From Paraconexibacter algicola (GTDB lineage: Bacteria; Actinomycetota; Thermoleophilia; Solirubrobacterales; Solirubrobacteraceae), in NCBI RefSeq assembly GCF_003044185.1, contig NZ_PYYB01000004.1, forward strand, positions 186,001 to 250,000: a stretch of 64,000 bases of DNA, given 5' to 3'. Every line of letters starts with the position of its first letter. The first letter of the stretch is position 1. A program made the position numbers and the translations under genes. The notes under the pieces are model-generated. The model did no database searches. It was not told where the DNA came from and saw only the letters and a list, made by a program, of their open reading frames with translations. Below, in pieces: positions 2,156-48,938 of the stretch.

Positions 2156-3448
2156 GTGACCACGTTCGAGCACCGGCTCACCACGCTCGACTCCGGCGTG
2201 CGGATCGTGACCGAGGCCCTGCCCTCGGTCCGGTCCGCCGCCCTGGGGTTCTGGATCGGCACCGGCTCGTCGGGGGAGACCCACGACGAGGCGGGCCTGT
2301 CCCACCTCATCGAGCACATGCTGTTCCGCGGCAGCTCCCGCTACGAGTCGCTGGAGATCGACCAGATCTTCGACGGCTTCGGCGCGGAGCTGAACGCCGG
2401 GACGGGCAAGGAGACGACGTCCGTCTACACGCGGGTGCTCGACGAGCACTTCGGGACGGCGTTCGACGTCATGGCGGACATGGTCTGGCGCCCGCGCTTC
2501 GACGCGCAGGAGCTGGACGCCGAGCGCGAGATCGTGCTCGAGGAGATCGCCATGTACGAGGACGACCCGCAGGACAAGGTCTTCGACGTGCTCGGCGACG
2601 CCGTGTTCGGCGACCACCCGCTGGGCCGCGCGATCATCGGCCGGGCCGAGGTCGTCTCCGGCACGCCGGCGGAGGGCCTCGCGGCCTTCCACGCCGGCCG
2701 CTACACGCCCGGCAACGTCGTCGTGGCCGCCGCGGGTGCGGTCGACCACGACGCGATCGTCGAGCTCGTCCGCGCCGCCGAGGGCGGCGTGGCGGCGGGC
2801 GGGCCGGTGCCGTCCGCCCCGCCCGTGGGCGCGGCCGAGCAGCGGCTGCGCTTCCACGCCAAGGAGACCGAGCAGTACCACCTGTGTCTCGGCACGCACG
2901 GGATCGCCCGTGACGACGACCGCCGCTACGCGCTGCGGATCCTCGACACGATCCTCGGTGGCAGCTCGTCGTCGCGGCTGTTCGTCGAGGTCCGCGAGAA
3001 GCGCGGCCTCGCCTACTCGGTCTCGACGTTCTCCTCCGCGTACGCGCACGCCGGCCAGTTCGGCCTGTACGTCGGCACGCGGCCGGACAACGTCGAGAAG
3101 GCCCTGAAGGTCATCGGCGACGAGCTCTCGCGCGCGATCGAGGACCCGGCCACCGACGCCGAGCTGCAGCGCGCGAAGGAGAACGTGAAGGGCCGCATCG
3201 GCCTGTCGCTCGAGTCGACGACGGCCCGGATGAACCGGCTCGGCTCCGCGGTCCTGGCCGACATGCCGCTGCTGTCGCTCGACGAGATCATCGAGCGCCT
3301 CGACGCGGTCACCGTCGAGGACCTGCGTGCGCTCGCGGGCGAGCTCCTGGACCCGGCGCGGCTCAGCGCCGCCGGCGTCGGCGGCAGCGAGGAGACGTTC
3401 CGCGCCGGCCTCGCGCACGTCTCCCCGAGCCTGGCGGAGGCGGCGTGA
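2156..3448 (+). CDS. M16 family zinc metalloprotease
   Basis: This is a processing-peptidase-like (YmxG/PepR type) zinc protease of 430 residues. The inverted zinc motif HxxEH is present as H50-L-I-E53-H54, and a downstream ExxxxD-type acidic region (EIVLEEIAMYEDD) supplies the third ligand. The length fits a single-chain two-domain M16B enzyme. The C-terminal half has the family's R-G-L-A-Y-S-V motif (REKRGLAYSV). I chose GTG 2156 because homologues begin right at the TxFEHRLTTLDSGVRIVTE segment; the frame is open further upstream but overlaps pnp with low-complexity sequence. Its stop overlaps the dapB start as GTGA, so the two are probably translationally coupled. The natural substrate is unknown. 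Confidence 0.93.
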   Translation: MTTFEHRLTTLDSGVRIVTEALPSVRSAALGFWIGTGSSGETHDEAGLSHLIEHMLFRGSSRYESLEIDQIFDGFGAELNAGTGKETTSVYTRVLDEHFGTAFDVMADMVWRPRFDAQELDAEREIVLEEIAMYEDDPQDKVFDVLGDAVFGDHPLGRAIIGRAEVVSGTPAEGLAAFHAGRYTPGNVVVAAAGAVDHDAIVELVRAAEGGVAAGGPVPSAPPVGAAEQRLRFHAKETEQYHLCLGTHGIARDDDRRYALRILDTILGGSSSSRLFVEVREKRGLAYSVSTFSSAYAHAGQFGLYVGTRPDNVEKALKVIGDELSRAIEDPATDAELQRAKENVKGRIGLSLESTTARMNRLGSAVLADMPLLSLDEIIERLDAVTVEDLRALAGELLDPARLSAAGVGGSEETFRAGLAHVSPSLAEAA

Positions 3449-4143
3449 CCGCCGCGGCCGACCCGATCCGCGTCGGCGTCGCCGGCGCGGCGGGACGCAT
3501 GGGGGCGACCGTCGTCGCCGCCGTGCAGGGCGCGCCCGACATGGTGCTCGCCGGGCAGGCCGACCCGGCCCTCGGCGTGGCGCTCGAGGACATCCTCGGG
3601 GACGTCGACGTCGTCGTCGACTTCACCCAGCCGCACACCGCGACCGCCAACGCGCTCGCCTGCCTGCGGGCGGGCGTGCACGTCGTCATCGGGACCAGCG
3701 GCTTCGACCTGCAGCCGCTCGTCGACCACGGCCGCCAGGAGGCCGCCAACGGGGTGACGCCCAACGCGCTGTTCTGCCCGAACTTCGCGATCGGCGCCGT
3801 GCTGATGATGCAGTTCGCCGCCGAGGCCGCGAAGCACATGGTCAAGGCGGAGATCGTCGAGCTGCACCACGACAAGAAGCTCGACGCCCCGTCGGGCACG
3901 GCGGCGCGGACCGCCGGGATGATGGCCGAGGCGACCGGGGGCCAGGCGCCGCCGATCCACTCGGTGCGCCTGCCCGGTCTCGTCGCCCACCAGGAGGTCC
4001 TGTTCGGCGGCGTCGGCGAGACGCTGACGATCCGTCACGACTCGCTGGACCGCTCCTCGTTCATGCCGGGCGTGCTGCTCGCGGTCCGGAAGGTCGGCGG
4101 GCTGACGAGCTCCCCGGTCGTCGGCCTCGAGCACGTCCTGTGA
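3445..4143 (+). CDS. dapB: 4-hydroxy-tetrahydrodipicolinate reductase
   Basis: DapB reduces the DapA product with NAD(P)H to tetrahydrodipicolinate in the lysine/diaminopimelate pathway. The N-terminal Rossmann loop is GAAGRMG. The catalytic signature ELHHDKKLDAPSGTA lies at residues 139-153, with H141/H142 and K144/K145 as the expected acid/base and substrate-binding residues. The 232-residue length is slightly short but complete. The start GTG overlaps the protease stop by four bases, and the dapB stop overlaps the next gene in the same way. dapA is about 7 kb downstream and dapD, dapC, dapE and dapF are also in this window. Confidence 0.96.
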   Translation: MTAAADPIRVGVAGAAGRMGATVVAAVQGAPDMVLAGQADPALGVALEDILGDVDVVVDFTQPHTATANALACLRAGVHVVIGTSGFDLQPLVDHGRQEAANGVTPNALFCPNFAIGAVLMMQFAAEAAKHMVKAEIVELHHDKKLDAPSGTAARTAGMMAEATGGQAPPIHSVRLPGLVAHQEVLFGGVGETLTIRHDSLDRSSFMPGVLLAVRKVGGLTSSPVVGLEHVL

Positions 4144-10815: not shown

Positions 10816-11679
10816 ATGGCCGGGCTCGGATCCATCCTCACCGCGATCGTCACCCCCTTCGCCGCCGACGGCAGCGTCGACGAGGACGCCTTCGTCGCCC
10901 TCATGGGTCACCTGGCGGACAACGGCTCCGACGGGGTCGTCGTCGCCGGGACCACCGGCGAGGCCGCGACGCTGGACGACGAGGAGCATCTCGCGCTCAT
11001 CGGCCTCGCGGTCACCGAGCGGCCCCGGCCGGACTTCACGGTCGTCGGCGGCGTCGGCTCCAACGACACCCGGCACGCCATCCACCTCACCGAGCAGGCC
11101 TGCGCCCTCGGCGCGGACGCCCTGCTGAGCGTCAACCCGTACTACAACCGCCCCAATCGGGCCGGGATCGTCGCGCACTACCGCGAGGTCTCGCAGGCCG
11201 CCGACCGGCCGATCATCCTCTACAACATCCCGCAGCGCACGGGATCGGACATGCCCAACGACCTCCTCGCCGAGCTCGCGCAGCTCGACCACATCGAGGG
11301 CGTCAAGCAGGCCAACAACGACAACCTCGCGCTCGTCGACGGCCTCGAGCTGTACGCGGGCAACGACGACGTCCTCGCGCTCACCCTCGACCTCGGCGGC
11401 GCCGGCGGCATCCTCGTCGCCAGCCACGTCGTCGGACCCGAGATGCAGCGCATGGTCGCCGAGCCCGCCGAGCGCGCCGCCATCCACGCCTCGCTCGTCG
11501 AGGTCTTCGAGGCGCTCAGCGTGGCGCCCGCCGCGGTCTGCACCAAGGCCGCCCTCAACCTTCTCGGTCGCCCCGTCGGCGAGCCGCGCCTGCCCTACGT
11601 GGCCGCGAGCGCCGACGAGACCGCCACCATTCGCGCGATGCTCGAGCGTCGCAACCTCCTGGAGACCACATCCACATGA
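10816..11679 (+). CDS. dapA: 4-hydroxy-tetrahydrodipicolinate synthase
   Basis: DapA condenses pyruvate with aspartate semialdehyde, the first committed step to lysine and diaminopimelate. The 287-residue TIM-barrel protein has the GTTGE substrate motif (residues 45-50), the proton-relay tyrosine in NPYYNRP (Y109/Y110) and the Schiff-base lysine K164 in EGVKQAN. The last strand motifs (GAGGILVASHVVGPEM) are intact. Its stop overlaps the start of rnj (ATGA). The dapA-rnj order is widespread in actinobacteria. Confidence 0.97.
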   Translation: MAGLGSILTAIVTPFAADGSVDEDAFVALMGHLADNGSDGVVVAGTTGEAATLDDEEHLALIGLAVTERPRPDFTVVGGVGSNDTRHAIHLTEQACALGADALLSVNPYYNRPNRAGIVAHYREVSQAADRPIILYNIPQRTGSDMPNDLLAELAQLDHIEGVKQANNDNLALVDGLELYAGNDDVLALTLDLGGAGGILVASHVVGPEMQRMVAEPAERAAIHASLVEVFEALSVAPAAVCTKAALNLLGRPVGEPRLPYVAASADETATIRAMLERRNLLETTST

Positions 11680-28197: not shown

Positions 28198-29091
28198 GTG
28201 TCCCGGGAGCTGCTGGCGATCTTCGGTCCCACCGGGGTGGGGAAGACCGGGCTCGCGCTCGCGCTCGCCCGTCGCCTGCGGGACCGCGGCGAGCGGCCCG
28301 TCGCCGTCTCCGCCGACGCCCTGCAGCTGTACGCGGGCCTGCCGATCCTCACCGGGGCCGCCGACGCCGCCGAGCAGCAGCAGCTGGAGCACCGGCTCGT
28401 CGGCGTGCTCCCGGTCACCGAGACCTGCAGCGCTGCCCGCTACGCGCGACTCGCGCACGCCGAGATCGACGCGATCCTCGCCGACGGCGGCACCCCGATC
28501 GTCGTGGGCGGCACCGGCCTGTACCTGCGCGCCGCGCTCGCCGACCTCGACCTCGCGCCCGCCCCGCCGCCCGGCCTGCGCGAGCGGCTGCTGGACCGCG
28601 TCGCCCGTGAGGGTCTCCCCGCACTGCACGCCGAGCTGACCCGCGTGGCGCCCGAGCGCGCCGCGGCCGTGGACCCGCGGGACACCACGCGCGTCGTGCG
28701 GAGCCTCGAGCTGCACGCGATGGGCGCGCTGCCGCAGCGCACCGGGGAGAGCGAGCTCTGGACCGCGCGCACGCGGCACCCGACACGGCTCGTGGCGCTC
28801 GTGATGGAGCGCGAGGCGCTCTACGCGCAGATCGACGCGCGCGTCGACGCGATGGTCGCCGCCGGGGCCGCGCGGGAGGTCCGGGACGCCGACGCGGCCG
28901 GGGCGTCCGCCACCGCGCGCCGCGCGATCGGCTTCGACGCGCTGCTCGACGGGGACGTGGACCGGATGAAGGCCCAGACCCGCCGCTACGCCAAGCGCCA
29001 GCTCACCTGGCTGCGCAAGCTGCCCGGCACCGAGGTCGTCGACGTGACCGGCCGCGCCGCCGCGGACGTGGCCGCGCAGCTGCTCCCGTAG
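28198..29091 (+). CDS. miaA: tRNA dimethylallyltransferase
   Basis: MiaA transfers a dimethylallyl group to A37 of tRNAs that read UNN codons, producing the substrate of MiaB. The 297-residue protein has the P-loop GPTGVGKT (residues 10-17), the SADALQLYAGLPILTG motif (a variant of the usual DSxQVYrgldIGTaK), and GGTGLYLRA. The C-terminal RRYAKRQLTWLRK motif is intact. Variation in the DSMQ-like box is conservative. dapF begins ten bases after its stop. Confidence 0.95.
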   Translation: MSRELLAIFGPTGVGKTGLALALARRLRDRGERPVAVSADALQLYAGLPILTGAADAAEQQQLEHRLVGVLPVTETCSAARYARLAHAEIDAILADGGTPIVVGGTGLYLRAALADLDLAPAPPPGLRERLLDRVAREGLPALHAELTRVAPERAAAVDPRDTTRVVRSLELHAMGALPQRTGESELWTARTRHPTRLVALVMEREALYAQIDARVDAMVAAGAAREVRDADAAGASATARRAIGFDALLDGDVDRMKAQTRRYAKRQLTWLRKLPGTEVVDVTGRAAADVAAQLLP

Positions 29092-29100: not shown

Positions 29101-29937
29101 ATGCGCTTCGAGAAGTGGCAGGCCCTCGGCAACGACTACCTCATCGTCGAGGCGACCGACCTGCCGTGGCCGCTCACGCCGGAGCGCGTGCGGCGCCTGT
29201 GCGACCGGCACGTCGGGCTCGGCTCGGACGGCATCCTCGAGCTCTCCGCGCCGGACGAGCCCGGGTTCGTCGCCCGGCTGCGGATCTTCAACCCCGACGG
29301 CTCGGAGGCCGAGCTCTCCGGCAACGGGGCGCGCGAGGCGATCATGTACCTGCGCCGCCGCGGGTGGACGACCGCCGACCGGTTCTCGATCCAGACCGTC
29401 GCCGGCGAGATCCGCCCGACGATCACCGGCGAGACGACGTGCACGGTCGACATGGGCCGCGCGCACCTCACCTCCAAGGACTACCCGGACGGCCCTGCCG
29501 ACGGCAGCGGCGAGGTGGCGGGCTTCGCCTTCCAGCACGTGTCGATCGGCAACCCGCAGTGCGCGATCCGCGTCGGGTCGGTCGCCGAGCTCGAGGCGCT
29601 CGACCTCCCCGCGATCGGTCCCGGGATCCAGCACGCGCCGATCTTCCCCAACCGCACGAACGTCTCGTGGTTCTGCGAGCTCGAGCCGGGCGTGATCCGG
29701 GCGCGGATCTACGAGCGCGGCGTCGGCGAGACGATGTCCTCGGGCACCGGGGCCAGCGGCGCCGCGGTCGCCTACGTGCTCCAGGGCGGCGACGAGGAGG
29801 TCACCGTGCACCTCGACGGCGGCGAGCTCACGGTCACCGTCTCCGAGGCGCTGCACGTCGACCTCGCCGGCTGGGCCGTCCCCGTCTACACCGGGGAGCT
29901 GAGCGGCGACCTGCTCGCCGAGCTCGCCGCGGGCTGA
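29101..29937 (+). CDS. dapF: Diaminopimelate epimerase homologue lacking both catalytic cysteines
   Basis: The 278-residue protein aligns along its length with DapF, which interconverts LL- and meso-diaminopimelate by a two-cysteine, PLP-free mechanism. Recognisable blocks are F-x-K-x-x-x-L-G-N-D, NPDGSEAELSGNGAR, VSIGNPQCAI and RIYERGVGET-SSGTGA. In known enzymes the catalytic cysteines follow GNGxR and precede GTG. Here these positions are Glu79 (GNGARE) and Ser214 (MSSGTGA); I checked the codons (GAG at 29335 and TCG at 29740). Remaining substrate-binding residues look intact. The gene lies among other dap genes. It may use other acid/base residues, act on another substrate, or be inactive, so the name is a family name only. 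Confidence 0.85.
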   Translation: MRFEKWQALGNDYLIVEATDLPWPLTPERVRRLCDRHVGLGSDGILELSAPDEPGFVARLRIFNPDGSEAELSGNGAREAIMYLRRRGWTTADRFSIQTVAGEIRPTITGETTCTVDMGRAHLTSKDYPDGPADGSGEVAGFAFQHVSIGNPQCAIRVGSVAELEALDLPAIGPGIQHAPIFPNRTNVSWFCELEPGVIRARIYERGVGETMSSGTGASGAAVAYVLQGGDEEVTVHLDGGELTVTVSEALHVDLAGWAVPVYTGELSGDLLAELAAG

Positions 29938-29943
29938 GCGGCC

Positions 29944-29959
29944 GACCGCCCGCGCGGTC
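29944..29959. terminator. Convergent hairpin terminator
   Basis: GACCGC and GCGGTC form a six-base stem around CCGC between dapF and the converging membrane-protein gene, touching the stop of the latter. There is no U-tract. Confidence 0.5.
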
Positions 29960-30929
29960 AGACGACCTCGAGCCGTCCGCCACCCTCGGGGAACATCAGC
30001 GGCACCTCCGGGCGCGCACCGCGGATCGCGGCGAGGACCTCGCCGGGCTCGGCGTCGACGAGGTGCAGCGGGAAGCTCATGGCGTTCTTCGAGCGTCGCA
30101 GCATCCGGTGCAGGACGGGGTCGGCCACCCGCGCGCGGTCGACGAGGACCTCGAGACGATGGTGGAAATGGACCCGGTGGACCAGCACGCTCTCGACCGC
30201 GTCCCACGGCACCGTCGGCCACGCCCCGACCGTGAGCCCGCGGGGATCGATCGCGATCGCCACGGGGCTGCGCAGCTGCGGCACCAGCTTCCACACGATG
30301 AAGGCCCCGAGCGCCGCCAGTGGCACGCCGAAGACGCTGCCGCCGAAGTTCGCGACGGGCACGAGCGCCACCCCGAGCGCGGTCAGCAGCAGGAAGCCGA
30401 CGAGCTGGTGGATCTGGCGGTCGCGGCGCCACGCGAAGCTGCTCGTCGACGCGGCCCCGAGGCGGAGCTCGTGGACGATCTCCTGGCCGAGCTCGCGCTC
30501 CTCGACGTCGGTGCGGGCGGCCGCCCGGCGCGCGACCACCCGATCGGCGACCGACCACATCACCAGGCCACCCGCCAGCGGCACGAGATCCTGGGCGCCG
30601 TCGGACCCGAGACGCAGCCCGAGCAGCGCCTGGTTGACCGCGATGACCCACGTCGCCAGGCCGAGCACCGGCACGGTGCGGATGGCGACGAGGCGCCGGT
30701 ATCCGACACGGCCCTCGAGCCCGACCGCGTCCACCGCAGGACGCCCGCGCTGCCACCGGTCCAGCAGCAGCCCGAGCGCCACCACGCCGAGCGTCACGCC
30801 GCCACTGCCCTCCGCGCTCGCGCCCGCCGCGTCGGCCAGGAGCCCCGCGGCGGTCGCCAGCAGCCCGATCCCGACGCAGACGACCACGTCGAGCGCGGTT
30901 CCGGAGCGGTTGTCGGCGGATCGCATCAC
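29958..30929 (-). CDS. Multi-pass membrane protein with PH-like C-terminus
   Basis: The 323-residue protein has about six hydrophobic segments in two groups: four in the first 125 residues and two near residues 175-220. After these, a C-terminal region (VAIAIDPRGLTVGAWPTVPWDAVESVLVH, in part) resembles the bacterial PH-like fold often found behind membrane segments. I recognise no named family. GTG 30929 is followed directly by an ATG at 30926, and either could be the start. It lies alone, divergent from dapD. Confidence 0.75.
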   Translation of the reverse strand: MMRSADNRSGTALDVVVCVGIGLLATAAGLLADAAGASAEGSGGVTLGVVALGLLLDRWQRGRPAVDAVGLEGRVGYRRLVAIRTVPVLGLATWVIAVNQALLGLRLGSDGAQDLVPLAGGLVMWSVADRVVARRAAARTDVEERELGQEIVHELRLGAASTSSFAWRRDRQIHQLVGFLLLTALGVALVPVANFGGSVFGVPLAALGAFIVWKLVPQLRSPVAIAIDPRGLTVGAWPTVPWDAVESVLVHRVHFHHRLEVLVDRARVADPVLHRMLRRSKNAMSFPLHLVDAEPGEVLAAIRGARPEVPLMFPEGGGRLEVV

Positions 30930-30991: not shown

Positions 30992-32005
30992 ATGAGCACT
31001 GACACGCAGCAGAGCGCCTGGGGCGTCGGCCTCGCGACCCTGACGACCGACGGGCGCGTCCTGGACACCCTCTTCACGCGCTTCCACCTCGACGCCGGGT
31101 CCGCCGACGCGCAGGCCGCGATCACGACCGCCAAGCACGAGGGCACCGGCACCAAGCCGCTGAACTTCGCGCAGGCGACGACGCTCGGTGGCGGCGGCCT
31201 GGCGGGCAGCATGGGGGAGGACGCGATCCGCGGCGTACGGGTCGTCCCGGTCCTCACCGTGCTCCCGGACCTCGCCGCCGCACCCGCCGACGCCTACGAC
31301 GCGTACCTGCGGCTGCACCTGCTCTCCGGCCGCCTCGTCGTCCCGCACGGCCTCAGCCTCGACGGCCAGTTCGGGCTGCTGACGAACGTCGCGTGGACGA
31401 CGCTCGGCCCGGTCGATCCGGCCGAGGTCGGCGCGGCGCGCCTGCGCGCCCGCGCGATGGGCGCCACCCTCACGGTCACGAGCATCGACAAGTTCCCGCG
31501 CATGACCGACTACGTGGTGCCGTCCGGCGTGCGGATCGCGGACGCCGACCGCGTGCGGCTCGGCGCGCACCTGGCCGAGGGCACGACCGTCATGCACGAG
31601 GGCTTCGTGAACTTCAACGCCGGGACGCTCGGCTCCTCGATGGTGGAGGGGCGCATCAGCGCCGGGGTCGTCGTCGGCGACGGCTCGGACATCGGCGGCG
31701 GCGCCTCGATCATGGGCACGCTGTCGGGCGGCGGCTCGACCGTCATCTCGATCGGGCAGCGCTGCCTGCTGGGCGCCAACTCGGGGCTGGGGATCAGCCT
31801 CGGCGACGAGTGCGTCGTGGAGGCGGGCACCTACGTGACCGGTGGCGCGCGCGTCACGACCCCGGACGGCGAGGTCGTCAAGGCGAAGGACCTCAGCGGC
31901 CGCGACGGCCTGCTGTTCCGTCGCAACAGCGAGTCGGGCGCGCTCGAGGTGCTGCCGCGCAGCGGCTCCTGGGGCGGCCTCAACGAGGCCCTGCACGCGA
32001 ACTAG
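30992..32005 (+). CDS. dapD: Tetrahydrodipicolinate N-succinyltransferase
   Basis: DapD transfers succinyl from succinyl-CoA to tetrahydrodipicolinate, the entry to the succinylase branch. The 337-residue length and the N-terminal segment ([20 protein letters not shown]) match the actinobacterial DapD type, longer than the enterobacterial one. The central and C-terminal part is a left-handed beta helix with hexapeptide repeats ([39 protein letters not shown]). The gene faces dapC, and the two stop codons share the bases CTAG. Confidence 0.95.
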
Positions 32006-33183
32006 ACGGGTCGGCCGCCGCGGCGCAGCAGGCGCTCGGCGGCCTCCGTGCACCGCTCGAGCGTGGGGACGAGCGCCACGCGCACGTACCCCTCGCCGGC
32101 GGGCCCGAAGTACGCGCCCGGCGTGACGACCAGGCCCGTCTCGTCCAGCAGCTCGGTCGCGAAGTCCTCCGAGCCCGTGACCCCCTGCGGCAGGGCCAGC
32201 CAGCGGAAGAACGTCGCCGGGCCGCCCGCGTCGCGCAGCCCGACGGCCTCGAGGCCCGGGGCGAGCACCGCGAGCTTGGCGCGGTACAGCGCGCGCACCG
32301 CGACGACGTGCTCCTCGTCGCCCCACGCGGCGACCGCCGCGCGCTGGACGAACTCCTGCGGCGCGACGCCGACGTTCGGCCGGTAGCGGCGCAGCGCCGC
32401 GATCAGGCGGGCGTCCCCGGCCGCGAACCCGGACCGGTAGCCCGGCATCGAGGACCGCTTGGAGAGCGTGTTGCAGACCAGCACGTTCTCGAGCGAGTCG
32501 AGCTGCAGGGCGCTGGCGGGCGGATCGCCGGTGAACCACAGCTCGCTGTACGCCTCGTCGCTGGCGAGCACGAAGCCGTGCTCGCGCGCGAGCGCCGCGG
32601 CGCGCTCGTAGAAGGCGAGCGGCGCGACGGCGGCGGTCGGGTTGTTCGGGTAGTTCAGCCACAGGATCGCGAGCCGTGACAGCTGCTCGGCGGTCAGCGC
32701 GTCCAGGTCGGGGAGGAAGTCACGCTCCGCGGTCAGCGGCAGCTCGAGGACCTCGCAGCCCGCGAACGCCGCCCCGCGCTCGGCGACCGGGTAGCCCGGG
32801 GAGGTCATCGCGACGAGGTCGCGGCCACCGCCCGCGCAGACCTCCGCGAGCGAGAAGACGAGCTCCTTGGAGCCGAGCGTCGGGACGATCTCGGTACCCG
32901 GGTCGACCGTGGCGCCGTAGCGCCGGTCGATCCACGCGGCGATCGCGTCGCGCAGCTCCGGCAGGCCGACGGCCAGCGGGTAGCCCGCGACGGGGTGGGC
33001 GCGGACCGCGTCGCAGAGCGCCTCGCGCAGGAACGCCGGGGTCTCCTCCCGCGGCTCGCCGACCCCGAGGTCGATGACGTCGACGCCCCGCGCGACCGCG
33101 GCGGCGCGCGCCTCGCCCAGGCGGACGAACGGATAGGTGCCCAGGCCCGTGAGGACCGGGTTCAGCGGCAGCGACGCGCTCAC
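32002..33183 (-). CDS. dapC: Succinyldiaminopimelate transaminase
   Basis: This is a fold-type I PLP aminotransferase of 393 residues. It carries the family's [23 protein letters not shown] and [10 protein letters not shown] motifs, the PLP lysine K242 in [13 protein letters not shown], and the arginine near the C-terminus (YVRVALVPT). Its place between dapD and dapE, with a GTGA overlap to dapE, supports the succinyl-aminoketopimelate transaminase role (DapC) over other aminotransferase functions. Reverse strand, second gene after dapE. Confidence 0.93.
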
Positions 33184-34292
33184 GGCCCGAACAGGAGCGC
33201 GTCGAGCGTCCGGTAGCAGCGCACGAGCGCCGCGACGGTCACGAGCTCGTCGCGGCGGTGCGCGTAGGACGGGTCACCGGGCCCGAAGTTCACGGCGTCC
33301 AGGCCGTGCAGCGCGAACTCCGCCACCGGGGTCCACGCCTGCTTGGGGTGGATCTCCAGGCCGCCGACCGCCACCAGGCGCTCGAGCAGCGGGTTGGCGT
33401 CCACCGCCACCACGGGCGCGGACGGGGCGTTGGAGAGGATCTCGAGCGTCTCGTCCTCGCCGCTGCACCAGGAGCGCAGCAGCGCGTCCGCGTCGGCGGC
33501 GCTGCGCCCGGGCGCGTAGCGCATGTTCACGTGCGCGTCGACGCGATCAGGGATGACGTTGTCGGCGATGCCGCCGGCGATCCGGACGACCGAGGCGACC
33601 TCGGTGAAGACGAGGCCGCCGAAGTCGTGGCGGATCGGGTCGACCGCGTCGAGGCGCACGATCCCGCGGGCCGCGCGCGTCATCGCGCTGTCGGCCTGCC
33701 AGGGCCGGGCGGAGTGGCCGCTGCGCCCGTGGAAGGTCCAGGTGGCGTTGACGTTGCCCAGGCAGCCGGCGTGGATCTGGTTGTCCGTCGGCTCCATCAT
33801 CAGCACGAGGTCCGCCTCGGCGAGGCCCGGCTCGCGCTCCAGCAGCGGCGTCAGCGCGCTCTCGCTGACGGGGAGCTCCTCGCGACCGAAGAACAGCAGC
33901 CGCACCCGGGCGCGCGCGGCCGCGGCGCGCGCCGGGTCGGCGGCGAGGTCGCGGCCGAGCTCGATCATCACCGCGAGCGCGCCGAGCATGTCGCTCGCGC
34001 CGAGCCCGTGGACGGCGGTGGCGTCGCGCCGGCCGGGCCGGTTGTCCTGCGCGGGAACGGTGTCGAGATGCCCGCCGAGCAGCAGCAGCGGCCCGTCCGC
34101 CGGGCCGGGCGGCTCGCCGATCACGCAGGTGTCCTGCGCGTCGCGGGCCGGGACGTCGCCCTCCTGGAGGACCGCGAGGACGTGGGCGGCGAGCGCGGCC
34201 TCGTCCCGGGACTCCGAGGGGATGTCGATGAGCTCGAGCAGCCGGGCGGCGAGGCGCTCGCCGAGCTCGGCGTCGGACGAACCGTGGAGCAC
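33180..34292 (-). CDS. dapE: Succinyl-diaminopimelate desuccinylase
   Basis: DapE is an M20 dinuclear zinc hydrolase that frees LL-diaminopimelate. The 370-residue protein has the metal motifs GGHLDTVPAQDN, HGLGASDMLGALAV, FFGREEL and MMEPTDNQIHAG, plus a dimerisation lid (FHGRSGHSARPWQADSA). The last metal-ligand region NFGPGDPSYAHRRDE is intact. It starts at a GTG six bases after a TAGAGT -10 box in a 25-base divergent promoter. With dapC downstream it completes the succinylase branch. Confidence 0.95.
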   Translation of the reverse strand: MLHGSSDAELGERLAARLLELIDIPSESRDEAALAAHVLAVLQEGDVPARDAQDTCVIGEPPGPADGPLLLLGGHLDTVPAQDNRPGRRDATAVHGLGASDMLGALAVMIELGRDLAADPARAAAARARVRLLFFGREELPVSESALTPLLEREPGLAEADLVLMMEPTDNQIHAGCLGNVNATWTFHGRSGHSARPWQADSAMTRAARGIVRLDAVDPIRHDFGGLVFTEVASVVRIAGGIADNVIPDRVDAHVNMRYAPGRSAADADALLRSWCSGEDETLEILSNAPSAPVVAVDANPLLERLVAVGGLEIHPKQAWTPVAEFALHGLDAVNFGPGDPSYAHRRDELVTVAALVRCYRTLDALLFGP

Positions 34293-46079: not shown

Positions 46080-46829
46080 TTAGACGCCCGCGGCGCGGCG
46101 CGCGGAGGCGTGCGCGGCGTCCTCGAGCGTGTCGTCGAGGGCCGCCAGCGGCTCCTCGATGCCCAGGGCGCGGGCGACGAGCCAGTCGGCGAACCACACG
46201 TTCTTGGGCAGGAGCGGACCGTGCAGGTAGGTGCCGACGACCGCGTGCCCGTGGAGGATCCCCTCGTGCCCGCTCGTGCCGGTGTTGCCGTGACCCTTGA
46301 GGACGCGGCCGAGCGGGGTGGCCGCCGGCCCGAGGTGCGTGCGGCCCCCGTGGTTCTCGAACCCGGCGAGCACGCGGCGGCCGCCGATCCCGCCGGCGGG
46401 GGGCAGGTCGACCTCGATCGCGACGTTCCCGATGAGCCGCTCGCCGTCGTGGCGGACGGTGTGCAGGTCGACGAGCCCGACGCCGGGGATCTCCTCCTCG
46501 CCGAGCTCGTAGGAGCGCCCGAGCAGCTGGTAGCCGCCGCAGACCGCAAGGATCGCGCCGCCGCGCGCGGCGTGGGCGTGGACCGCGTCGCGCTTGTGCG
46601 TGGCGAGGTCCTCGGCGACGAGCTGCTGGTCGCGGTCCTGCCCGCCGCCCAGGTAGAGGAGGTCGTGGCCGTCGGGGTCGATCTCGTCGCCGTGCCCGGC
46701 GCCGGTGAGCGTGAAGCCGATCCCCCGCCAGGCGCAGCGCTGCTGCAGCAGCAGCAGGTTGCCGCGGTCGGCGTAGATGTTCATGAGGTCGGGGAAGAGC
46801 GCGCAGACGCGCAGGGTCCGGTCAGCCAC
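46080..46829 (-). CDS. gatD: Lipid II isoglutaminyl synthase, glutaminase subunit
   Basis: GatD releases ammonia from glutamine for MurT, which amidates the D-Glu of lipid II. The 249-residue class I (CobB/CobQ-like) amidotransferase has the nucleophile C97 in ILAVCGGYQLLG and the catalytic His203 in GTYLHGPLLPKN. The N-terminal motif LFPDLMNIYADRGNLLLL is typical of GatD. It is the last gene of a five-gene reverse operon and overlaps the methyltransferase gene by eight bases; murT lies one gene further up. Confidence 0.95.
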   Translation of the reverse strand: MADRTLRVCALFPDLMNIYADRGNLLLLQQRCAWRGIGFTLTGAGHGDEIDPDGHDLLYLGGGQDRDQQLVAEDLATHKRDAVHAHAARGGAILAVCGGYQLLGRSYELGEEEIPGVGLVDLHTVRHDGERLIGNVAIEVDLPPAGGIGGRRVLAGFENHGGRTHLGPAATPLGRVLKGHGNTGTSGHEGILHGHAVVGTYLHGPLLPKNVWFADWLVARALGIEEPLAALDDTLEDAAHASARRAAGV

Positions 46830-47565
46830 GGAGCACCACCACGGTGGAGCCGACGTACTCGTCGGTCTGGGGGATCGCGCGGTGCGGCAGCGGCTCGTAG
46901 CCGTGCTCGCGGGCCTCGGCGGCCAGCTCGTCGGGCGTGACGCGGTGCAGCACGACGGTGTTCGCGACGACGGCGCGGCGGCCGGCCCCGTCGACGGTCT
47001 CGCGGATGCGGTCGATCGCGAGGCGGTCGCCGAGGTCGCGCACGCGGACCGGCCGGCTGGCGTAGACGACGCCGCCGAGCTCGCGCATGTCCGGCAGCGG
47101 CGGCTCGGTGTGCTCCTCGTCGTAGGCGTCCATGGCGTCGGCGAGCGCGATCGCGACCGTGCCGCCAGGGGCGAGCACGGCGCGCGTGCTGGCGAGGAAC
47201 CCGGCGCGCGCGGCCCGGCCGGGCAGCAGCTGCAGCGTCTGCATCGGCACCAGCACGAGGTGGAACGGCGGGCGGTCGGGCAGCGCGTAGGCGCTCGCGT
47301 CCGCCGCGACCGTCGGGATGCCGCCGCGGCGCTCGCGCAGGGCGGCGAGGAGCACCGGGTCGAGGTCCAGGGCGGTGACGTCGACGCCGTGGCGGGCGAG
47401 GTCGACGCTCACGCGGCCGGTGCCCGCCCCGACGTCCAGCACCGGGCCGCGGGCGGCGCTCGCCAGCTCGCGCCACAGCGGCAGGTCGATGTCGTAGCCG
47501 CCGCACTCCAGGTCGTGCCAGAGCACGACGAGCGCGTCGCCGGTGAGCGGGGTGGCGGCGGTCAT
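46822..47565 (-). CDS. Class I SAM methyltransferase between murT and gatD
   Basis: The 247-residue protein has the SAM loop PVLDVGAGTGRVSVDLARHG, the second acidic motif VTALDLDPVLLAAL, and VVANTVVLHRVTPDEL near the C-terminus, all in a Methyltransf_25/11 pattern. It overlaps murT (four bases) and gatD (eight bases). In most actinobacteria murT and gatD are adjacent, so the insertion is notable. The substrate is unknown; a small metabolite or lipid role is possible. Confidence 0.88.
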   Translation of the reverse strand: MTAATPLTGDALVVLWHDLECGGYDIDLPLWRELASAARGPVLDVGAGTGRVSVDLARHGVDVTALDLDPVLLAALRERRGGIPTVAADASAYALPDRPPFHLVLVPMQTLQLLPGRAARAGFLASTRAVLAPGGTVAIALADAMDAYDEEHTEPPLPDMRELGGVVYASRPVRVRDLGDRLAIDRIRETVDGAGRRAVVANTVVLHRVTPDELAAEAREHGYEPLPHRAIPQTDEYVGSTVVVLRG

Positions 47566-48938
47566 CCGAAGCTGCTCCCGGCGACGCCGCGGCGCACGAG
47601 CTCCTCGCGCAGCGCGAGCATCGCCGTGTAGGTGGGGAGGGCGAAGAGGCGGCCCTCGCCGCCGTCCAGGGCCGCGTCGAGGCCGGCGGCGAGCCCGTCG
47701 ACGACCGTGATGCGATCCGTCGGGACCCCGGCGTACTTCAGCCGCAGCGCCATCTCGGGTGCGCGAGTGCCCGAGCAGGTGGCGCGCCGCACGCGCGGGG
47801 CGAGGACCTCGAAGTCGGCGTCCCAGATCCAGCTGACGTCGCGGCCGTCGGCGGTGTTGTCGTTGAGCACGGCGAAGAGGTCGTGCTCGCCGTCCTCGAG
47901 CGCGAGCGTGTGGAGGACCTCGTTGGCGCCCGCGGGGTTCTTCACGAGCATGAGCGTGGTCTCGCGGCCCGCGATCGTGACGGTCTCGGCGCGGCCGAAC
48001 GCGGCGCCGACGGCCTCCAGCCCGGCGACGACGTCGGCGAGCGGCGCGCCCAGCGCGCCGGCGAGCGCGGCGGCGGCGAGCGCGTTGTAGACGTTGTAGA
48101 GGCCGGGGAGCGGCAGCGCGACGGACGCCTCGCCCTCGGGGGTGACGAGCCGGAAGCTCGCGCCGCGCACGCCGCGCAGCACGACGTCGTGCGCGGTGAC
48201 GGTGGGCGCCGGCCGGGCGGCCCCGCAGCGCTCGCAGCGGTAGTGGCCGAGGTGTCCGAGGAAGACGACGTCGTAGACGTACGCGGCGCCGCAGGTGCGG
48301 CAGTGGGTGGAGTCCGAGGCGTGCTGCAGCGTGTCGCGGGCCACCGCGGTGTCCTGCACGCCGAAGTACGTGACGCCGTCGGCGCGGGGCCGCCCGAGGT
48401 CGGCGACGAGCGGGTCGTCGGCGTTGAGGACGAGCGTCGTGTCGGGGACGGTGGTGACGAGCGTCGCCCAGCGGTCGGCGATGGTGTCGAGCTCGCCGTA
48501 GCGGTCGAGCTGGTCGCGGAACAGGTTGGCGAGCAGCAGCGCGCGCGGGCGCAGCTGCGGGACGACCCGGTCGAGCCAGAACTCGTCGACCTCGAACAGG
48601 CCGGTGTCGCCGTCGAGGCCGCCGCGGGTGGCCGCGCCCATGAGGGTCGCCGCGATGCCCCCGGCCATGTTCGCCCCGGCGCGGTTGTGGACGAGCCGGG
48701 CGCCGCCGTGCTCGAGGATCGACGCGACCATCGCGGCCGTGGTGGTCTTGCCGTTGGTGGCGGAGATGACGGCGCTGCCGTGCGGCAGGCGGGCGGCGAG
48801 ACGGCCGATCGCGTCGGGCTGCAGCCGCATCAGGACCTTGCCCGGCAGGCTCGTGCCGCCGCCCCGGCCGGCGCGGCGCGACACGGCCCCGGCGGCGCGG
48901 GCCACCGCGATCTTCGCGTCGAGTGCGCGGCCGGCCAT
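47562..48938 (-). CDS. murT: Lipid II isoglutaminyl synthase, ligase subunit
   Basis: MurT is a Mur-ligase-like enzyme that amidates the alpha-carboxylate of lipid II D-Glu with ammonia from GatD. The 458-residue protein has the P-loop ISATNGKTTTAA, the central ligase motifs FEVDEFWL and NLFRDQLDRYGELDT, and the zinc ribbon CRTC...CERC that is special to MurT. The C-terminal DUF1727 domain is present (FAVLNDNTADGRDVSWIWDADFE, in part). It overlaps the lipid kinase gene upstream by one base. Confidence 0.96.
   Translation of the reverse strand: MAGRALDAKIAVARAAGAVSRRAGRGGGTSLPGKVLMRLQPDAIGRLAARLPHGSAVISATNGKTTTAAMVASILEHGGARLVHNRAGANMAGGIAATLMGAATRGGLDGDTGLFEVDEFWLDRVVPQLRPRALLLANLFRDQLDRYGELDTIADRWATLVTTVPDTTLVLNADDPLVADLGRPRADGVTYFGVQDTAVARDTLQHASDSTHCRTCGAAYVYDVVFLGHLGHYRCERCGAARPAPTVTAHDVVLRGVRGASFRLVTPEGEASVALPLPGLYNVYNALAAAALAGALGAPLADVVAGLEAVGAAFGRAETVTIAGRETTLMLVKNPAGANEVLHTLALEDGEHDLFAVLNDNTADGRDVSWIWDADFEVLAPRVRRATCSGTRAPEMALRLKYAGVPTDRITVVDGLAAGLDAALDGGEGRLFALPTYTAMLALREELVRRGVAGSSFG

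What the first reader, a model, noticed from the sequence alone, without database searches (positions are those of the whole stretch)
29101..29937. DapF homologue without either catalytic cysteine
Seen: in the GNGxR motif the next residue is Glu79 (codon GAG, 29335), and the residue before GTGA is Ser214 (codon TCG, 29740). Known: DapF racemises LL-diaminopimelate by a two-cysteine, PLP-free mechanism with Cys after GNGxR and Cys before GTG. The protein is otherwise full-length and lies among dapA, dapB, dapC, dapD and dapE. Inference: either the enzyme uses Glu/Ser or another pair, or it acts as a different racemase, or the cell uses LL-diaminopimelate directly and this gene has another job.
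Basis: partly seen in the sequence, partly recalled or inferred. Interest (0 to 1): 0.7.

Follow-up and report, generated by a model that had tools for sequence, protein, structure and literature searches.

The report
DapF with serines replacing catalytic cysteines
A whole order of soil bacteria, whose cell walls need meso-diaminopimelate, carries as its only DapF enzyme a version in which both cysteines thought to be essential for the reaction are serines, so either serine can do this chemistry or an unknown enzyme does.

Summary
The gene at 29101-29937 is an intact DapF (TIGR00652) lacking both catalytic cysteines. The pair is Ser73/Ser214, and a family-wide His is Gln153. This is no sequencing error: every DapF I fetched from the order Solirubrobacterales (132 loci, 109 distinct sequences) is Ser/Ser/Gln, apart from one likely contaminant. 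It is the window genome's only DapF. Own genome: LysA present, Ddh absent, one alanine-racemase-type protein. In the order, Ddh occurs in 3 of 232 genomes and LysA in 61 of 61 tested. Published cell walls of the order contain meso-DAP. All DAP-binding residues reported for Anabaena DapF are kept, and the gene follows miaA beside lysine genes, as in Cys/Cys relatives. Ser/Ser also appears, apparently independently, as the only DapF in another Thermoleophilia family and in Aquificota and Methylomirabilota; one genus is partly Ser/Cys. The best explanation is an active DAP epimerase using a serine pair. The main rival is an unidentified epimerase elsewhere, with this protein doing another job. 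No activity was measured. New variant of a known kind.

The parts
29101..29937 (+). dapF-type gene, 278 aa, Ser73/Ser214 in place of the catalytic Cys pair
29317..29319 (+). codon TCC, Ser73: column of first catalytic Cys (Cys73 H. influenzae, Cys75 Anabaena)
29557..29559 (+). codon CAG, Gln153: His of GNPHC in the Cys/Cys rows
29740..29742 (+). codon TCG, Ser214: column of second catalytic Cys (Cys217 H. influenzae, Cys224 Anabaena)
28198..29091 (+). miaA, directly upstream; same neighbour in Cys/Cys Thermoleophilia
30992..32005 (+). dapD (TIGR03535, over cut-off)
32002..33183 (-). dapC-type aminotransferase (best TIGR03537, below its cut-off)
33180..34292 (-). dapE (TIGR01900, over cut-off)
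10816..11679 (+). dapA (TIGR00674, over cut-off)
3445..4143 (+). dapB (TIGR00036, over cut-off)

Best explanation
The protein is the cell's diaminopimelate epimerase and turns LL-DAP into meso-DAP with a serine pair instead of the cysteine pair. Ser73 and Ser214 lie at the N-termini of helices 74-86 and 215-227, one on each face of the substrate alpha carbon, where the thiolate and thiol sit in ordinary DapF. LL-DAP is gripped as usual: proximal carboxylate by backbone NH of Gly74, Asn75, Gly215 and Thr216, proximal ammonium by Asn11, distal end by Asn64, Asn151, Asn187, Glu205 and Arg206. The closed, dry pocket and helix dipoles let one serine, as alkoxide, take the alpha proton while the other returns one to the opposite face, presumably more slowly than a Cys pair. 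Shown: sequence, conservation, sole copy, pathway context, predicted fold. Inferred: activity, substrate, and that the serines are the bases. How serine is activated is unknown.
For: Only one DapF in the window's genome; in the order 220 of 232 genomes have a match, nearly all exactly one. Own genome: LysA at G000:C2, no Ddh, one alanine-racemase-fold protein. Order: LysA in 61 of 61 genomes searched, Ddh in 3 of 232. Complete dapA-B-D-C-E set in the window. Cell walls of Solirubrobacterales contain meso-DAP (PMC3035278; PMC10722151). The residues that bind DAP in Anabaena DapF (PMC12039745) are all conserved at over 97% in 138 rows. Both serines are invariant although written with TCN and AGY codons (Ser73 128/4, Ser214 109/23), and many of these lie one base from Cys. 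dN/dS median 0.18, no long stem. Gene order miaA-dapF-lysine gene is shared with Cys/Cys relatives. Ser/Ser is also the only DapF found in families f7 and f11 of the class and in Aquificota and Methylomirabilota genomes, mostly with LysA and without a Ddh over cut-off. The Ser/Cys 4-hydroxyproline epimerase B9JQV3 of the same fold is active (PMC4113996). AlphaFold2 model: mean pLDDT 96.8, serines at helix N-termini; best PDB matches are DapF and O-ureidoserine racemase.
Against: Cys to Ser changes in related Cys/Cys racemases leave under 0.1% activity (PddB, and Mt-DapF as cited there, PMC8225329) or greatly reduce it (HisR, PMC11602996). Chemical models favour Cys over Ser as base (PMC8142540). 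The family-wide His is also lost (Gln153) in the order. The Ser/Cys precedent keeps one Cys; I found no characterised Ser/Ser epimerase. E. coli without dapF still makes meso-DAP (PMC4227774), so an unrecognised epimerase activity exists in nature. No activity data.
Confidence: 0.6

Rival explanations
1. Another, unidentified enzyme makes meso-DAP in these bacteria, and the Ser/Ser protein has kept the fold and DAP pocket for a non-catalytic job such as sensing DAP or binding a partner protein.
For: E. coli dapF null mutants still make meso-DAP while accumulating LL-DAP (PMC4227774); catalytically dead E. coli DapF still activates RppH; Cys to Ser mutants of relatives are nearly dead; dN/dS is somewhat higher than in the Cys/Cys pairs compared (0.18 against 0.09; different pairs).
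Against: Ddh is in only 3 of 232 genomes of the order and no excess of alanine-racemase-fold proteins is seen. In the aligned set both replacements are always Ser, never Ala, Gly or Thr, on separate branches. All DAP ligands are retained.
Confidence: 0.2
2. The protein acts on DAP or a close analogue by a different reaction, such as one-sided alpha-proton exchange or an elimination, as Ser/Thr members of the related proline racemase family do.
For: In the same fold, a Ser/Thr protein is a trans-3-hydroxyproline dehydratase (PMC4113996), and Cys-to-Ser glutamate racemase mutants keep elimination with chlorinated substrates (PMC8142540).
Against: It would leave meso-DAP without a known source; DAP has no beta leaving group; ligands for both ends of DAP are kept; it is the positional orthologue of dapF.
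Confidence: 0.1
3. Epimerisation is not needed: the cell puts LL-DAP into its wall, and LysA accepts LL-DAP or lysine is taken up.
For: Would explain loss of the catalytic pair with retention of a relic; no tool result supports it directly.
Against: Meso-DAP is reported as the diagnostic wall amino acid of the order; LysA is in all 61 genomes searched; the gene is under purifying selection and in nearly every genome.
Confidence: 0.05

Closest known systems
Diaminopimelate epimerase DapF (TIGR00652 / PF01678; PDB 9MRO, 1GQZ, 4IJZ)
   Same: Whole sequence (about 30-36% identity), fold (VIA-align Z 35.8 over 264 residues, 2.0 A, to 9MRO), DAP ligands, gene context with miaA and lysine genes.
   Different: Both catalytic Cys are Ser and the GNPHC His is Gln.
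4R-hydroxyproline 2-epimerase with Ser/Cys pair (B9JQV3, PMC4113996)
   Same: Same fold; a serine serves as one of the two acid/base residues of an active epimerase.
   Different: Keeps a Cys on the other face; substrate hydroxyproline; distant sequence.
[quoted passage not shown]
   Same: Same fold; no Cys at either catalytic position.
   Different: Dehydrates, does not epimerise; Thr on the second face; other substrate pocket.
H. influenzae DapF C73S and C217S mutants (PDB 2Q9H, 2Q9J)
   Same: Single Cys to Ser changes at the same two columns.
   Different: Engineered, one at a time; such changes are made to hinder catalysis and help crystallise the open form (PMC12039745). Here both are natural and fixed in a clade.

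Membership tests
DapF sequence family (TIGR00652) | Full-length match above the curated cut-off | tested here: met
   190.8 bits against 114.65, residues 1-267
DapF sequence family (TIGR00652) | DapF fold | tested here: met
   AlphaFold2 pLDDT 96.8; DapF chains at Z 28-36
DapF sequence family (TIGR00652) | Residues contacting both ends of DAP (N11, N64, G74, N75, N151, N187, E205, R206, G215, T216) | tested here: met
   Ligand list, conservation
DapF sequence family (TIGR00652) | Orthologous gene position | tested here: met
   miaA-dapF-lysine gene order shared by Ser/Ser and Cys/Cys Thermoleophilia
Classical two-cysteine, PLP-independent DapF enzyme | First catalytic Cys, before GNG | tested here: not met
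   Ser73, and Ser in all 132 order loci
Classical two-cysteine, PLP-independent DapF enzyme | Second catalytic Cys, before GTG | tested here: not met
   Ser214, and Ser in all 132 order loci
Classical two-cysteine, PLP-independent DapF enzyme | Conserved His of GNPHC | tested here: not met
   Gln153
Classical two-cysteine, PLP-independent DapF enzyme | LL-DAP to meso-DAP epimerase activity | not testable with these tools
   Needs purified protein or a knockout
meso-DAP dehydrogenase bypass (Ddh) | TIGR01921 protein in the genome | tested here: not met
   Absent from own genome; 3 of 232 in the order

The most novel reading that the evidence does not exclude
Cofactor-free amino-acid epimerisation by a natural serine/serine acid-base pair, evolved more than once from the cysteine pair (Solirubrobacterales with a sister family, another Thermoleophilia family, and an Aquificota/Methylomirabilota/cyanobacterial lineage) and serving as the only source of meso-DAP in most of those cells.
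Probability: 0.5. Interest if true: 0.85.

Novelty: new variant of a known kind. Interest (0 to 1): 0.68.

Why it matters
DapF is a textbook two-base enzyme whose thiolate/thiol pair is held to be essential and which is pursued as an antibacterial target. Natural Ser/Ser forms that appear to be the only DAP epimerase of whole clades would show that the thiol is not required, would give a natural serine-pair system for studying how enzymes remove an alpha proton of very high pKa without a cofactor, and would probably be insensitive to thiol oxidation and to thiol-directed inhibitors. If they are inactive, then an unknown DAP epimerase exists in these bacteria, which would bear on a known gap (E. 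coli without dapF still makes meso-DAP). The NCBIfam and Pfam models call these proteins DapF although both catalytic residues are missing.

Tried and rejected
Sequencing error: rejected, as the state is shared by 132 other loci. Glu79 as replacement base: rejected, as it is off the catalytic column and Gln in 14 of 138 rows. Second canonical DapF in the genome: none in protein and Pfam searches at E up to 10. Genome G116 has a Cys/Cys DapF-type gene on a 4-kb contig (L085/L270) that falls outside the clade on a long branch; I take it as a likely contaminant, not proved. Ddh bypass: absent from own genome. Extra alanine-racemase-fold enzyme: own genome has one. One origin of all Ser/Ser forms: not favoured by the tree (none of 200 bootstrap trees put the Ser/Ser/His rows on one side of a branch), but an AU test of one clade for all Ser/Ser rows gives p 0.075, so one origin is not formally rejected. 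An autocatalytic A/S-S-G cofactor (MIO-like) at Ser214: considered only because of the motif; nothing supports it, and the preceding residue varies. Paper searches found no report of a cysteine-free DapF; subscription papers are mostly not covered.

Full report
OBSERVATION. The ORF 29101-29937 (+) encodes 278 aa and is a full-length DapF by Pfam PF01678 (142 bits) and TIGR00652 (190.8 bits, cut-off 114.65). Alignment to solved DapFs shows that the catalytic cysteines lie before GNG and before G(T/S)G. The window has Ser73 (TCC, 29317) and Ser214 (TCG, 29740) there. A third change, His to Gln153 in GNPHC, was not noticed.

DISTRIBUTION. A scan of genome contigs with the protein gave about 65 loci at 56-78% identity, titled mostly Solirubrobacterales or Thermoleophilia-type bacteria, including Conexibacter arvalis and Solirubrobacter taibaiensis; all have Ser at the first position, and all that reach the second position have Ser there too. 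With loci taken from whole genomes the aligned set is, own genome and repeats left out: Ser/Ser/Gln 132 loci (109 distinct sequences), so far as placed all in the window's order; Cys/Cys/His 87; Ser/Ser/His 25; Ser/Cys/His 5. Ser/Ser/His occurs in families f7 and f11 of the same class, in a subset of Aquificota, in Methylomirabilota, and as a second copy beside a Cys/Cys DapF in a cyanobacterium. Ser/Cys occurs in five genomes of one genus, g64, which also holds a Cys/Cys member. Within the searches made, the Aquificota, Methylomirabilota, f7, f11 and g64 genomes examined have a single DapF match.

TREE. In a tree of 69 rows made without the trait columns, the order's Ser/Ser/Gln proteins form one clade (100/99) and group with two f11 Ser/Ser/His and two f10 Cys/Cys proteins (98/96). 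In the first tree f11 is their sister (88), f7 is joined to a Cys/Cys f5 protein (87), and the Aquificota/Methylomirabilota/cyanobacterial group stands alone (100). The simplest count is five changes among the four states, i.e. about three gains of Ser/Ser and one of Ser/Cys. The AU test does not formally reject one origin (p 0.075).

IS IT THE ONLY EPIMERASE? The window's genome (95.6% complete) has one DapF, one LysA, no Ddh and one alanine-racemase-fold protein. The window holds dapB, dapA, dapF, dapD, dapC and dapE, so LL-DAP is the expected pathway product. In the order, 220 of 232 genomes have DapF (111 of 112 good ones), almost always one match; about ten have two, of which only G116 was examined. 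LysA is in 61 of 61 genomes tested and Ddh in 3 of 232. Published wall analyses report meso-DAP for the order (PMC3035278) and for Solirubrobacter deserti (PMC10722151). In the other Ser/Ser or Ser/Cys genomes, none of 29 has Ddh over its cut-off, and 15 of 17 have a LysA match; f7 and f11 mostly have LysA. Racemases of other folds were not searched for.

CONSTRAINT. The DAP contacts listed for Anabaena DapF (PMC12039745) map to N11, N64, G74, N75, N151, N187, E205, R206, G215 and T216, all kept in the window and conserved at over 97% in the order. Both serines are invariant; codons are TCN/AGY 128/4 at Ser73 and 109/23 at Ser214, so serine has been kept across codon families although cysteine is one base from many of these codons. 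dN/dS among close pairs is about 0.18, against 0.09 in the Cys/Cys pairs compared; those pairs come from other clades. Gene order miaA-dapF-aminotransferase or dapD is the same in Ser/Ser loci and in most Cys/Cys Thermoleophilia among L070-L077; the downstream aminotransferase of L031 is of the LL-DAP aminotransferase type.

STRUCTURE. AlphaFold2 gives mean pLDDT 96.8 with helices 74-86 and 215-227 directly after Ser73 and Ser214, the same placing as the catalytic Cys at helix N-termini. PDB matches: O-ureidoserine racemase Z 36.0 (1.8 A, 266 residues) and Anabaena DapF Z 35.8 (2.0 A, 264 residues), tied, then other DapFs.

MECHANISM. I favour a working epimerase with a serine acid-base pair. 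The precedent is a Ser/Cys 4-hydroxyproline epimerase of the same fold (PMC4113996). Against it stand the very low activity of engineered Cys to Ser racemases, chemical arguments, and the loss of His. The natural proteins have had time to adapt: several positions are changed and fixed in the order (A8, A58, Q153, S189, I203, G220). Whether these matter is unknown. The rival of a hidden epimerase is real, since E. coli dapF mutants still make meso-DAP (PMC4227774). Sequence alone cannot separate the two; either outcome would be new.

Noticed in passing
L147, L150, L151, L153, L156 (genus g64, family f9): Single-copy DapF with a Ser/Cys pair, in a genus that also has a Cys/Cys member (L141): a natural half-way state.
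   Followed up: partly
L074, L079, L080, L081, L082 and Aquificota loci such as L190, L220, L223-L229: A separate Ser/Ser DapF lineage (EKSGNGxRI ... ASG[TS]S) in Methylomirabilota and Aquificota as the only copy, and in a cyanobacterium beside a Cys/Cys copy.
   Followed up: partly
L115, L116 (genus g26, family f2): Three genomes of the order (G001, G004, G012) carry a meso-DAP dehydrogenase and also a DapF; the one whose DapF I fetched (G012, L268) is Ser/Ser/Gln.
   Followed up: no
L085 / L270 (genome G116, contig 79, 4 kb): A Cys/Cys DapF-type gene in a genome of the order, long branch outside the clade; likely a contaminant contig.
   Followed up: partly
29958-30929 (-): 323-aa ORF between dapF and dapD with no Pfam or NCBIfam match; its N-terminal part looks hydrophobic.
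   Followed up: no
46080-46829 and 47562-48938 (-): GatD-like amidotransferase and MurT ligase, resembling the pair that amidates lipid II glutamate, with a methyltransferase-like ORF (46822-47565) between them.
   Followed up: no
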